Assembly (NCBI RefSeq): GCF_014698995.1
Contig: NZ_JACWZZ010000001.1
Span: forward strand, 124,001-188,000
Source: Hymenobacter duratus
GTDB taxonomy: Bacteria > Bacteroidota > Bacteroidia > Cytophagales > Hymenobacteraceae
Direction of reading: 5' to 3'
Length of the DNA: 64,000 nucleotides
Shown: positions 8,347 through 62,389 of the stretch, piece by piece
Layout of the letters: every line of letters begins with the position of its first letter
Position numbering within the stretch: position 1 is the stretch's first letter
The notes under the pieces: model-generated
Told to the model about the DNA's origin: nothing
The model's database searches: none
The model's input: the letters and a program-made list of their open reading frames with translations, nothing else
Position numbers and translations under genes: made by a program

Positions 8347-8369
8347 CGTCTACTACCACTACCAGGCCC

Positions 8370-8463
8370 GTCATTCCGAGCGCAGCCGAGGAATCTCGCT
8401 AGTGTGGTAGAATTGCCATCACAACCTCAGCACGCGAGATTCCTCGGCTGCGCTCGGAATGAC
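8370..8463. repeat. Long inverted-repeat element, copy 1 (30-bp arms)
   Basis: Arms 8370-8399 and 8434-8463 are perfect 30-bp reverse complements around a 34-base loop. The arm begins GTCATTCCGAGCGCAGCCGA. The loop contains GTGTGGTAG (8402-8410), which recurs in the loop of the copy at 57716-57816. The element fills the gap between the TPR gene and a small minus-strand gene. Its shape suggests a REP/MITE-like mobile repeat that can also fold as an RNA hairpin. Confidence 0.85.
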
Positions 8464-8483
8464 GTTCTGGGCAAGGCGAAATC

Positions 8484-30261: not shown

Positions 30262-30318
30262 GCCAACAACAGCAACGCCCCGCACTACTAGGTAGTGCGG
30301 GGCGTTGCTGTTGTTGGC
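30262..30318. terminator. 27-bp perfect hairpin between convergent genes
   Basis: 30262-30288 and 30292-30318 are perfect reverse complements with loop TAG. It lies between the AraC gene and the minus-strand GGGP synthase gene. There is no T-run on either side, so it is either an unusual bidirectional terminator or another palindromic element. Confidence 0.75.
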
Positions 30319-53189: not shown

Positions 53190-53240
53190 GAGCACAAAAA
53201 AGCCCCTGCGTTTCTGAAACGCAGGGGCTTTTTTGTGCTC
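53190..53240. terminator. 24-bp perfect hairpin terminator
   Basis: 53190-53213 and 53217-53240 are perfect reverse complements, loop CTG. The stem includes A6/T6 and runs six bases past it (GTGCTC). Confidence 0.88.
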
Positions 53241-57701: not shown

Positions 57702-57715
57702 AGACCACGGCCCCT

Positions 57716-57816
57716 CTGTCATCCTGAGTGCAGCGAAGGACCTTGCCACGTTGGAGTTACTACCACACGGATTCATTCTAGTGTGGCAAGGTCCTTCGCT
57801 GCACTCAGGATGACAG
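57716..57816. repeat. Long inverted-repeat element, copy 2 (34-bp arms)
   Basis: Arms 57716-57749 and 57783-57816 are perfect 34-bp reverse complements around a 33-base loop. The arm starts CTGTCATCCTGAGTGCAGCG. The loop carries CTACCACAC (57760-57768), the reverse complement of the GTGTGGTAG in the loop of copy 1. Translated in one frame it gives RSFAALRMT, a sequence often wrongly attached to protein N-termini. Confidence 0.88.
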
Positions 57817-57875
57817 GCGGCCCTGCAACTTCCCGCCGCCGGCCCCGGTTACTACGTTTCATTCCACCCGCTATT

Positions 57876-59761: not shown

Positions 59762-60286
59762 ATGAACCGAATTTTCCTGCTGCTTTCCCTGCTGCTGATT
59801 GTGGCCGCCGGCGTGGCCTACTATTTCCTGGGCGGCTTCAAAAAGGCTGACGTTACGCTGGAAACTACGGCTCAGCCTATCTTTCTGGCCGGCCGCTACT
59901 TCGAAGGCCCGGCCAATAGCGAGCAGTTCGGCGACCTGACCCGTGAGGCCTACGAAATCCGGACTTCCGGCAAGCTGCGCGGCACCTTCGGCAACATCTT
60001 CTACAACGACCCCGCCAAGGCCAGCGAAACAGCCAAGGTGTTCGTGGGCCTGGTAGTGGAGGATACTGTGTCGCAGCAGTTGCCGAAAGGCTACCGTTAC
60101 CGGGCCTTTGGCGCCGGCCAGCGCGTGCTGCATGCCCGTATCATTGCCAGCTACCTTGTAGCGCCAGACAAGCTCTACACCGGCGTTAAGGCAGCGGCCA
60201 AGGAGCAGGGGCTGACGTTGCAGAACGTATACCTGGAGAAGTTTCCTGCTACCGGCCCGGTAGAAGTGTGGGCCGCAGTGAAATAA
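59762..60286 (+). CDS. Membrane-anchored GyrI-like ligand-binding protein
   Basis: 174 residues. N-terminal TM anchor (IFLLLSLLLIVAAGVAYYFLGGF) and then a GyrI/SOUL-like small-molecule-binding domain with two-repeat layout: IFLAGRYFEGPANSEQFGDLTREAYEI, GTFGNIFYNDPAK, VFVGLVVEDTV, QRVLHARIIASYLVAPDKLYTGVKAAAKEQG. Such domains bind hydrophobic ligands; here it would face the periplasm. Role unknown. Confidence 0.75.
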   Translation: MNRIFLLLSLLLIVAAGVAYYFLGGFKKADVTLETTAQPIFLAGRYFEGPANSEQFGDLTREAYEIRTSGKLRGTFGNIFYNDPAKASETAKVFVGLVVEDTVSQQLPKGYRYRAFGAGQRVLHARIIASYLVAPDKLYTGVKAAAKEQGLTLQNVYLEKFPATGPVEVWAAVK

Positions 60287-60289
60287 TCC

Positions 60290-60368
60290 ATACCGACCTG
60301 TTTTTCAGAAAAGAGCCCGACTGGAAACTCCTTCCAGTCGGGCTCTTTTCTGAAAAACAGGTCGGTAT
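60290..60368. terminator. 37-bp perfect hairpin between convergent genes
   Basis: 60290-60326 and 60332-60368 are perfect reverse complements around ACTCC. The inner part is a normal GC-rich terminator stem with A4/T4 tracts; the outer 18 bases extend it (CTGAAAAACAGGTCGGTA). It starts 3 bases after the GyrI-like stop and overlaps up to the next gene's end. Confidence 0.9.
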
Positions 60369-61073
60369 TTACAGCGAGTAGCCGCGGCCCAGGTAGAACG
60401 AAGCCCCCAGGCGCAGGTCGCGCAGCCGGAAGCCCATATCGAAGGCCGATGAAGTTGGCTTTTCGCCAGTATAGTCATCGCCACTATAGCTGAGGCGCTG
60501 ATAGGAAAGTCCCCGCAGGCCTACTTCCAGCGCAAAAAAGTGTGTGGGAAAATACACGAAGCCCGGACTCAACTGGCCATAGAAGCCGGAGTTTTTGGCG
60601 TCGGAATTTCCAAAATAAACGGGCGGCTTATCCTTGTAGGTGGCTGCTGAGTACCCGGCGCCCGCGTGGCCGTAGAAAGCTGCTTTATCGCCAATAAATT
60701 GGTAGTAGCGAACAAATGGCCCCAGTTGCATCCAGCGGGTGGTGTTTTCGCCATACAGCACGGTGGCAGTGGGCTGCCCGGGGCCCGGGTTGATAACCAC
60801 CGGAATAATAGCCGGGTAGTTGCGCGTCTCCTGCTGCCAGTTCATTTGCACGCCCACCACCAAGTTGTTGGCCACAAAATAGCCAGCTGTCGGGCTGACC
60901 GTAATCTGGCGCAGCCGGTCCTCGTACGCCGGCAGGAAACCGGTAGCAGCCACTTTCGTCAGCTGCTGCCGGTAGCCAAGGCTGCCGCCCAGCAGCACTG
61001 TGCCCGCTGAAATCTGCGCCTGCGCGGCGCTGGTCGTTGCCGCTGCCAGCACGCCAAGTAAGTAGTATCTCAT
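60369..61073 (-). CDS. Outer-membrane beta-barrel protein (copy B of tandem pair)
   Basis: 234 residues: signal peptide ending AAQAQISAG, then alternating amphipathic strands (GYFVANNLVVGVQMNWQQETRNY, LGPFVRYYQFIGDKAAFYGHAGAGYS, GFVYFPTHFFALEVGLRGLSY), ending LRLGASFYLGRGYSL. Clearly paralogous to the gene 11 bases upstream; the pair forms one operon. Small porin-like barrel of unknown specificity. Confidence 0.85.
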   Translation of the reverse strand: MRYYLLGVLAAATTSAAQAQISAGTVLLGGSLGYRQQLTKVAATGFLPAYEDRLRQITVSPTAGYFVANNLVVGVQMNWQQETRNYPAIIPVVINPGPGQPTATVLYGENTTRWMQLGPFVRYYQFIGDKAAFYGHAGAGYSAATYKDKPPVYFGNSDAKNSGFYGQLSPGFVYFPTHFFALEVGLRGLSYQRLSYSGDDYTGEKPTSSAFDMGFRLRDLRLGASFYLGRGYSL

Positions 61074-61084
61074 GGTGCAGTGCG

Positions 61085-61747
61085 CTAGTTACGGCCCAGA
61101 TAGAAGGAAGCCCCGAAGCGCAGATCATTGAGGCCAAAGCCGAAGTCGAGCGCACTGGTTTTCATCTCGGGGGCAAAATCGTGGGCTTCCTCTTTCATCT
61201 GCTCGTAGCTCAGGCCGCGCAAGGAAAGCTCCAGCCCGAATTTGGGAGTAGGGAAAAACACGAAGCCGGGGGCCAACTGCCCGTAAAACCCTTTTCGGTC
61301 GTGCTGGAAGGAGGGACGGCCGAGGCCCGGCTCCGTGAGCTGGCGGGCACTCCGATAGCCGCCGCCGACCTGCCCGAAAAAAGCTGCCTGGTCGCCGCCA
61401 ACAAACTTGTAGTAGCGCAGTACCGGCCCGAGGCTGAATTCCTTGGTGTTGTATTCGCCATAGGCAACATACGGGTCAAATGGATCAATGGCATTGTAGA
61501 TAGGATAGTCTTCGTTGCCATTGACATAGCCCACATTCAGTCCCAACATCAGGTTGTCGGCCAGAAAGTGCCCTGCCCCCAGGTTGCCTTCGAAGCGGCT
61601 GATTTTGCTGTCGTAGTTGCCCGACTTGTTGGTGACGCTGGTGTAGCCAATGTTGCCAGTCAGAAGGGTAGTGCCTTTGGCAATCTGGGCCTGCGCCCCC
61701 GAGGCTGCAGCAAGGCTGAGTGCCAGGCTGCTAATAAGGATTTTCAT
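61085..61747 (-). CDS. Outer-membrane beta-barrel protein (copy A of tandem pair)
   Basis: 220 residues with signal peptide (MKILISSLALSLAAASGAQAQ). It has the same strand pattern as the downstream copy: GHFLADNLMLGLNVGYVNG, LGPVLRYYKFVGGDQAAFFGQVGGGYR, GFVFFPTPKFGLELSLRGLSY, and terminal LRFGASFYLGRN. The shared motifs show a tandem duplication followed by divergence. Confidence 0.87.
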   Translation of the reverse strand: MKILISSLALSLAAASGAQAQIAKGTTLLTGNIGYTSVTNKSGNYDSKISRFEGNLGAGHFLADNLMLGLNVGYVNGNEDYPIYNAIDPFDPYVAYGEYNTKEFSLGPVLRYYKFVGGDQAAFFGQVGGGYRSARQLTEPGLGRPSFQHDRKGFYGQLAPGFVFFPTPKFGLELSLRGLSYEQMKEEAHDFAPEMKTSALDFGFGLNDLRFGASFYLGRN

Positions 61748-62338: not shown

Positions 62339-62389
62339 TCAGCAAAAAGCCGCCCCTCCTGCTAGGCAGGAGGGGCGGCTTTTTGCTGA
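62339..62389. terminator. 24-bp perfect hairpin terminator of fbaA
   Basis: 62339-62362 and 62366-62389 are perfect reverse complements with loop TAG, including A5/T5 tracts. On the minus strand it follows the fbaA stop by 25 bases. Confidence 0.88.

What the first reader, a model, noticed from the sequence alone, without database searches (positions are those of the whole stretch)
60290..60368. 37-bp perfect hairpin at a convergent gene junction
Far longer than a standard terminator stem and completely mismatch-free. The outer 18 bases extend beyond the A/T tracts, so terminator function alone does not require them. Perfect identity suggests recent palindrome formation (for example template switching) or selection for a long double-stranded RNA that could be an RNase III target.
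Basis: partly seen in the sequence, partly recalled or inferred. Interest (0 to 1): 0.5.

Follow-up and report, generated by a model that had tools for sequence, protein, structure and literature searches.

The report
Terminator hairpin filling a convergent-gene gap
Between two genes that point at each other, a stop-signal hairpin has grown, most likely by a DNA-copying slip, until it is a perfect 37-base-pair palindrome filling almost the whole gap; similar over-long palindromes recur at such junctions in related bacteria.

Summary
In detail: arms 60290-60326 and 60332-60368 form a 37-bp mismatch-free hairpin with a 5-nt loop, covering 79 of the 82 nt between two convergent stop codons. The genome is a Hymenobacter. 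The core (14 bp plus A4/T4) looks like an ordinary bidirectional terminator; the outer 19 bp is the odd part. Closest relative G068 has only an inner stem. The left spacer aligns ungapped with G068 (15/27; 15 of 20,000 shuffles), the right spacer at chance. So the right outer arm looks rewritten from the left, as in template switching.

It is not a one-off. Of 90 orthologous junctions, 7 carry perfect stems of at least 30 bp. Hymenobacter samples hold 2-4 perfect hairpins of 20 bp or more per 100 kb; the order sample 1 in 180 kb, class/phylum and E. coli samples none. Across 57 convergent cases the gap stays near 81 nt whatever the stem length (rho 0.04), and the dyad centre sits about 40 nt from each stop.

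Selection for a long dsRNA is not shown, though some long stems are conserved. No RNA data were available.

The parts
60290..60326 (.). left arm of the 37-bp perfect hairpin
60332..60368 (.). right arm of the 37-bp perfect hairpin
60327..60331 (.). 5-nt loop
60313..60345 (.). terminator core: 14-bp G+C-rich stem and loop; a related core is at the same place in G068 and G059
60346..60349 (+). T4 (within TCTTTTCT), U-tract for the + gene
   Evidence: sequence
60309..60312 (-). A4 on +, U-tract for the - gene
   Evidence: sequence
60290..60308 (.). outer left arm, 19 nt; part of a 27-nt spacer that aligns ungapped with G068
60350..60368 (.). outer right arm, 19 nt; no detectable homology to the G068 right spacer, inferred copy of the left arm
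59762..60286 (+). upstream convergent gene, 174 aa, no Pfam match; match in 119 of 120 genus genomes (own genome included); stop codon 60284-60286
60369..61073 (-). downstream convergent gene, 234 aa, no Pfam match itself, beside an OMP_b-brl gene at 61085-61747; stop codon 60369-60371

Best explanation
The site is a bidirectional intrinsic terminator shared by two convergent genes. Its working part is the inner stem: a 14-bp core plus the A4/T4 tracts, centred about 40 nt from each stop codon. In this lineage the terminator was extended outward. A polymerase stalled in the existing inverted repeat switched template and copied the left spacer into the right one (quasipalindrome extension), lengthening the right spacer and giving a perfect 37-bp palindrome that runs to the stop codons. 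The outer 19 bp is mainly a product of this DNA-level process; it is bounded by coding sequence and forms in RNA only on read-through. Shown: anatomy, absence of the outer stem in the closest relative, left-arm homology and its absence on the right, recurrence in the genus. Inferred: the template-switch step, termination in vivo, and the lack of a required outer-stem function.
For: Perfect stem filling 79 of 82 nt between stops. Closest relative G068 (91% DNA identity in blocks summing to 328 kb, some overlapping) and G059 have only inner stems. Left spacer (stop to core, boundary set by me) is 27 nt in all three, with 15/27 ungapped identity to G068 (15 of 20,000 shuffles); the right spacer is 24 nt here and 16 nt in G068 and aligns at chance (2762 of 5000 shuffles score as high). 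Stem edges are sharp: beyond the first mismatch 141/585 (39 of 44 G000 stems) and 154/615 (41 of 44 G068 stems) positions pair, against 25.8% by chance. Gap length does not depend on stem length (rho 0.035, p 0.80, n=57) and stop-to-centre distance is about 40 nt in convergent and tandem cases. Recurrent long stems: 7 of 90 junctions at least 30 bp. Mirrored changes with near-identical flanks, including an indel: G000 443768 against G068; G017 against G055, 12 mirrored substitutions plus two gap columns over 32 pairs. RNA cut at the T-tract folds only the 21-bp inner stem. Template switching that perfects quasipalindromes is described for E. coli (PMC7202029, passages).
Against: The left arm itself has 12/27 differences from G068, so there may have been several events in both directions. 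Against G059 the left arm is not significant (10/27; 2900 of 20,000 shuffles), and the right arm against the reverse complement of the G068 left spacer is only weakly similar (483 of 5000). G084, second by protein match, has a 26-bp perfect stem, so a longer ancestral stem lost in G068 is not excluded. Where both G000 and G068 keep perfect stems of at least 14 bp, mirrored differences are rarer (10 in 339 pairs, plus 30 gap columns) than flank differences (179 in 1187), and G111/G119 share a 39-bp stem with one mirrored change while the right flank is 95/123 identical: some long stems look constrained. Stems of at least 25 bp are commoner at convergent (9/57) than tandem sites (1/61), which mutation alone does not predict. 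In the junction panel pairing beyond the first mismatch is 185/596 (31%), slightly above chance. The terminator scan did not list the site.
Confidence: 0.6

Rival explanations
1. The long stem is selected as RNA at convergent junctions: it strengthens two-way termination or, in read-through transcripts, makes a dsRNA that is cut by RNase III or blocks antisense transcription into the opposite gene. Point mutations are compensated one by one.
For: Long stems are enriched at convergent over tandem sites: at least 20 bp 24/57 vs 7/61, at least 25 bp 9/57 vs 1/61; the counts pool three genomes, so orthologues count more than once. A 39-bp stem is conserved between G111 and G119. Outer pairs are unchanged on both sides in 172 of 226 cases between G000 and G068, 160 of 189 (85%) when the focal and one rearranged junction are left out, against about 73-76% expected from flank divergence.
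Against: The outer stem is absent in the closest relative; only 16 of 90 junctions have a perfect stem of 20 bp or more. No link between stem length and weak U-tracts (rho 0.06 and 0.10). Stem edges are all-or-nothing. Terminated RNA lacks the distal arm (inference).
Confidence: 0.27
2. The palindrome is a mobile or dispersed repeat (REP, MITE or terminator cassette) inserted at the junction.
For: Dispersed GTCATYCYGAGC-type repeats exist in this window (8 matches with up to 1 mismatch, 1.08 expected), and one such repeat forms the 42-bp stem in G068.
Against: The focal sequence is single-copy in its genome (itself and its own reverse complement only); among 119 other genus genomes only G003 has a weak match; none in plasmids. 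Core and left spacer are at the orthologous place in G068.
Confidence: 0.03
3. Assembly or sequencing fold-back artefact.
For: Perfect inverted repeats can arise as fold-back artefacts (general knowledge).
Against: It fits exactly between two intact stop codons in a 1.9-Mb contig, and other genomes carry comparable perfect stems at the same junction with different sequences.
Confidence: 0.03
4. A DNA-level site (cruciform or a protein-binding dyad) rather than an RNA or mutational feature.
For: A perfect 37-bp dyad could extrude as a cruciform (general knowledge).
Against: The outer sequences of the long stems seen differ from junction to junction; position follows gene ends, not a motif. No motif search was made.
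Confidence: 0.05

Closest known systems
Bidirectional intrinsic (Rho-independent) terminators of convergent genes; compensatory evolution of terminators in Bacillus cereus (PMC5381666, abstract and passages)
   Same: G+C-rich stem between convergent stops, A-tract on one side and T-tract on the other, paired changes in the stem.
   Different: Stem of 37 bp running to both stop codons. The abstract describes two-step compensation; the terms 'template switch' and 'stem length' were not found in that text.
Template-switch mutations that create and maintain RNA hairpins (PMC8794818, abstract and passages)
   Same: One arm rewritten as the reverse complement of the other, stem extension with an insertion in one half, mirrored multi-base changes.
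   Different: That work treats RNA genes; 'terminator' was not found in its text. Here the hosts are terminators inside a gap of near-constant length.
Quasipalindrome correction in E. coli (PMC7202029, passages)
   Same: An imperfect inverted repeat becomes a perfect or more perfect one by copying the nascent strand.
   Different: Laboratory reporters; here inferred from comparison of species.
Excess of inverted repeats in prokaryotes (Ladoukakis and Eyre-Walker 2008, seen only as cited in PMC4060949 passages); E. coli inverted-repeat map (PMC6060812, passages)
   Same: Perfect inverted repeats over-represented; in E. coli those of 8 bp or more near gene ends are mostly parts of intrinsic terminators.
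   Different: Reported lengths are short (6-9 bp in coding sequence in the former); E. coli is said to be poor in repeats of 13 bp or more with spacer up to 8.

Membership tests
Bidirectional intrinsic terminator | G+C-rich hairpin just past the stop codons of two convergent genes | tested here: met
Bidirectional intrinsic terminator | U-tract after the core in both directions | tested here: met
   6 T in the best 8-nt window on each strand; imperfect run, TCTTTTCT
Bidirectional intrinsic terminator | found by a simple terminator scan | tested here: not met
   not among the 5 listed sites; probably because its T-run lies inside the full stem. A prediction aid, not a defining property
Bidirectional intrinsic terminator | transcript 3' ends at the U-tract | not testable with these tools
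   no Term-seq data
Template-switch (quasipalindrome) extended hairpin | perfect reverse-complement arms with sharp ends | tested here: met
Template-switch (quasipalindrome) extended hairpin | shorter or imperfect stem in relatives at the same place | tested here: met
   G068, G059, G012, G074; G084 has 26 bp of other sequence
Template-switch (quasipalindrome) extended hairpin | one arm ancestral, the other new | tested here: met
   against G068; against G059 alone not significant
Template-switch (quasipalindrome) extended hairpin | single event, switch points reconstructed | tested here: inconclusive
   left arm also diverged (12/27); switch points not resolvable
RNase III dsRNA target | processed double-stranded product | not testable with these tools
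   no RNA data
REP/MITE-like dispersed repeat | several copies in the genome | tested here: not met
   single copy

The most novel reading that the evidence does not exclude
In Hymenobacter, convergent gene ends obey a ruler (dyad about 40 nt from each stop, gap about 80 nt), and inside that gap terminator stems are repeatedly grown and rewritten to perfection by template switching until they meet the stop codons, while selection keeps some of the grown stems. The genus would be a natural record of palindrome growth and arm homogenisation at high density.
Probability: 0.4. Interest if true: 0.6.

Novelty: new variant of a known kind. Interest (0 to 1): 0.42.

Why it matters
How long, flawless stems arise and stay flawless has puzzled evolutionary biologists (PMC8794818, abstract). 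If the genus pattern holds, Hymenobacter gives many junctions where donor and recipient arms might be told apart, so template switching and stepwise compensation could be weighed against each other at terminators. It also bears on terminator prediction: this site, whose T-run lies inside a longer stem, was missed by the simple scan used here. The near-constant stop-to-centre distance suggests a spacing rule linking the end of translation and the terminator.

Tried and rejected
Dispersed repeat or plasmid origin: no other copies (one weak match in G003). Weak U-tract compensated by a longer stem: no correlation. Rfam at gathering threshold: three tRNAs only in the window. Pfam for the two flanking genes: no family. 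Scan of named genomes for closer species: 8 Hymenobacter loci, best 86% protein identity, none closer than G068 at 93%. Literature searches with the term sets returned nothing; those listed no paper on long terminator palindromes in Hymenobacter or other Bacteroidota (titles and abstract starts seen).

Limits of the counts. The junction panel is 90 of the 119 genus genomes with a protein match (own genome included); the 29 left out are the lowest-scoring. Not all 90 junctions were checked to be convergent. Gene calls come from my own codon-usage caller. The 57 convergent cases are those with gap up to 140 nt, of 70; the 61 tandem cases those with stop-to-stem below 150 nt, of 62; both pool G000, G068 and G059, so orthologues count more than once. 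The outgroup samples are small (9 stretches from 6 genomes of the order, 11 from 11 genomes of the class or phylum) and of other base composition (G+C 0.39 and 0.51; Hymenobacter samples 0.57-0.60). In one search, 14 of 44 G000 and 11 of 44 G068 hairpins had no usable orthologous junction and are not in the pair counts; gap placement makes some mirrored changes there count as broken. The comparison takes only stems perfect in both genomes, which favours conserved ones. One shuffle was made.

On re-checking, the confidence of the best explanation was lowered from 0.62 to 0.60 and that of the RNA-selection rival raised from 0.25 to 0.27, because G084, second by protein match, has a 26-bp stem.

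Full report
Check. It sits between an ORF ending at 60286 (+) and one ending at 60369 (-), so it fills 79 of the 82 nt between the two stop codons, leaving 3 nt on the left and none on the right. It folds at -69.2 kcal/mol. In 464 kb of the same genome there are 47 perfect stems of 12 bp or more with loops of 3-12 nt, none in one block-shuffled version, and this one is the longest.

Where it is. Record titles for the 8 named relatives of the upstream gene are all Hymenobacter, and the contig length of one of them (673,774 bases, H. psychrotolerans) equals that of G059:C21. The window is C1:124001-188000 of a 4.67-Mb assembly.

Anatomy. From the loop outward: 14 bp of mostly G+C pairs, A4/T4, then 19 bp. 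The first 18 pairs look like a conventional two-way terminator. RNA cut just past the T-tract, in either direction, folds only a 21-bp inner stem of -38.6 kcal/mol. The outer right arm would be transcribed only by polymerase that has already failed to stop. That step is inference; no RNA data were available. The simple terminator scan did not list the site.

Orthologous junctions. The upstream gene has a match in 119 of 120 genus genomes, its own included. The closest, G068 (93% protein identity; 91% DNA identity in blocks summing to 328 kb), has a 15-bp inner stem with one mismatch. Of the next four by protein match, G084 has 26 perfect pairs of other sequence, G059 has 18, G012 and G074 have 13. 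The left spacer, stop to core, is 27 nt in G000, G068 and G059. Against G068 it shows 15/27 ungapped identity, reached by 15 of 20,000 shuffles. The right spacer is 24 nt here and 16 nt in G068 and aligns no better than shuffled sequence (2762 of 5000). So the left arm is homologous and the right arm looks new, as expected if the left spacer was copied into the right. Results that weaken this: the left arm has 12 of 27 differences from G068, far above the genome average; against G059 it is not significant (2900 of 20,000); the right arm compared directly with the reverse complement of the G068 left spacer is only weakly similar (483 of 5000); and the 26-bp stem of G084 leaves open a longer ancestral stem lost elsewhere.

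Recurrence at this junction. Of 90 junctions examined (of 119), the longest perfect stem within 200 nt of the stop is at least 30 bp in 7, 25-29 in 5, 20-24 in 4, 15-19 in 19, 10-14 in 32 and below 10 in 23; all 90 shuffled versions fall below 10. The seven longest start between -3 and +7 nt from the end of the stop codon. In G017 and G055 stems of 35 and 32 bp are both perfect yet differ by 12 mirrored substitutions and two gap columns, with right flanks 94/122 identical. In G111 and G119 stems of 39 and 42 bp differ by a single mirrored change, with right flanks 95/123 identical. Turnover and constraint both occur.

Genome-wide. Perfect stems of 20 bp or more: 14 in 464 kb of G000 (3.0 per 100 kb), 11 in 400 kb of G068, 8 in 400 kb of G059, 16 in 400 kb of 20 further genus genomes, 1 in 180 kb of 6 genomes of the order, 0 in 220 kb of 11 genomes of the class or phylum, 0 in 250 kb of E. 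coli K-12. Base composition differs between these sets. By my gene calls, convergent gaps of 20-400 nt hold a perfect stem of 12 bp or more in 22 of 47 (G000), 23 of 41 (G068) and 21 of 40 (G059) cases, and of 20 bp or more in 9, 10 and 5. Among 57 convergent hairpins with gap up to 140 nt (three genomes pooled) the gap has a median of 81 nt (IQR 73-97) and does not change with stem length (rho 0.035, p 0.80), while the unpaired spacer shrinks (rho -0.39, p 0.003). The dyad centre is 41 and 39 nt from the two stops, and 41.5 nt in tandem cases. Stems of at least 20 bp occur in 24 of 57 convergent and 7 of 61 tandem cases. Long stems thus replace spacer rather than add length.

Edges and changes. 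For stems with at least 13 perfect pairs from the loop, pairing over the 15 positions beyond the first mismatch is 141/585 in G000 and 154/615 in G068, against 25.8% by chance; in the junction panel it is 185/596 (31%). The stems are perfect and then close to random, which fits copying. Examples of mirrored change: G000 443768 (28 bp) against G068 (30 bp), with several mirrored substitutions and a mirrored indel and 1 of 40 flank differences; G000 271554 against G068, with four mirrored pairs in the outer part and 5 of 40 flank differences. At another junction G068 has a perfect 32-bp stem where G000 has an imperfect one. Against a purely neutral reading: where both genomes keep perfect stems of at least 14 bp, mirrored differences are 10 in 339 pairs (plus 30 gap columns) while flank differences are 179 in 1187, partly because only stems perfect in both were compared. 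Over all comparable hairpins, outer pairs are unchanged in 172 of 226 and inner pairs in 325 of 360. U-tract quality shows no relation to stem length.

Reading. The core is a known kind of element. The outer stem is best explained by template switching in an existing quasipalindrome, a mechanism described for E. coli (PMC7202029, passages) and proposed for RNA genes (PMC8794818, abstract and passages). Stepwise compensation in terminators is also documented (PMC5381666, abstract and passages) and probably contributes. The convergent-site excess and the conserved 39-bp pair mean that a selected role for long stems cannot be excluded. That a ribosome ending at a stop codon would cover part of the outer left arm is recalled knowledge and was not tested.

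Verdict. The wider pattern, a gap of near-constant length with stems growing inside it, is the more interesting finding and deserves a full comparative study.

Noticed in passing
window 30262-30318, 53190-53240, 62339-62389: Three more long perfect hairpins (27, 24 and 24 pairs with a 3-nt loop). The first is convergent and nearly identical in G068; the second and third fall at tandem junctions by my gene calls, and the third is replaced by different hairpins in G068 and G059.
   Followed up: partly
window 8369-8464 and 57709-57823: Inverted copies of a dispersed GTCATYCYGAGC-type repeat (8 matches with up to 1 mismatch in the window, 1.08 expected). A relative of it forms a 42-bp perfect stem at a G068 convergent junction.
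   Followed up: partly
L106 (G111) and L108 (G119): 39- and 42-bp perfect stems at the same junction with one mirrored change, while the right flank is 95/123 identical: a candidate for a conserved long terminator stem.
   Followed up: partly
L018:6675-6721 (G000:C1:374675-374721): 22-bp perfect hairpin with a weak T-tract (3 and 4 T of 8) at a tandem junction and several mirrored differences from G068.
   Followed up: no
window 59762-60286: 174-aa gene without a Pfam match, matched in 119 of 120 genus genomes and weakly in 12 of 54 genomes of the order outside the genus: a conserved protein of unknown role.
   Followed up: no
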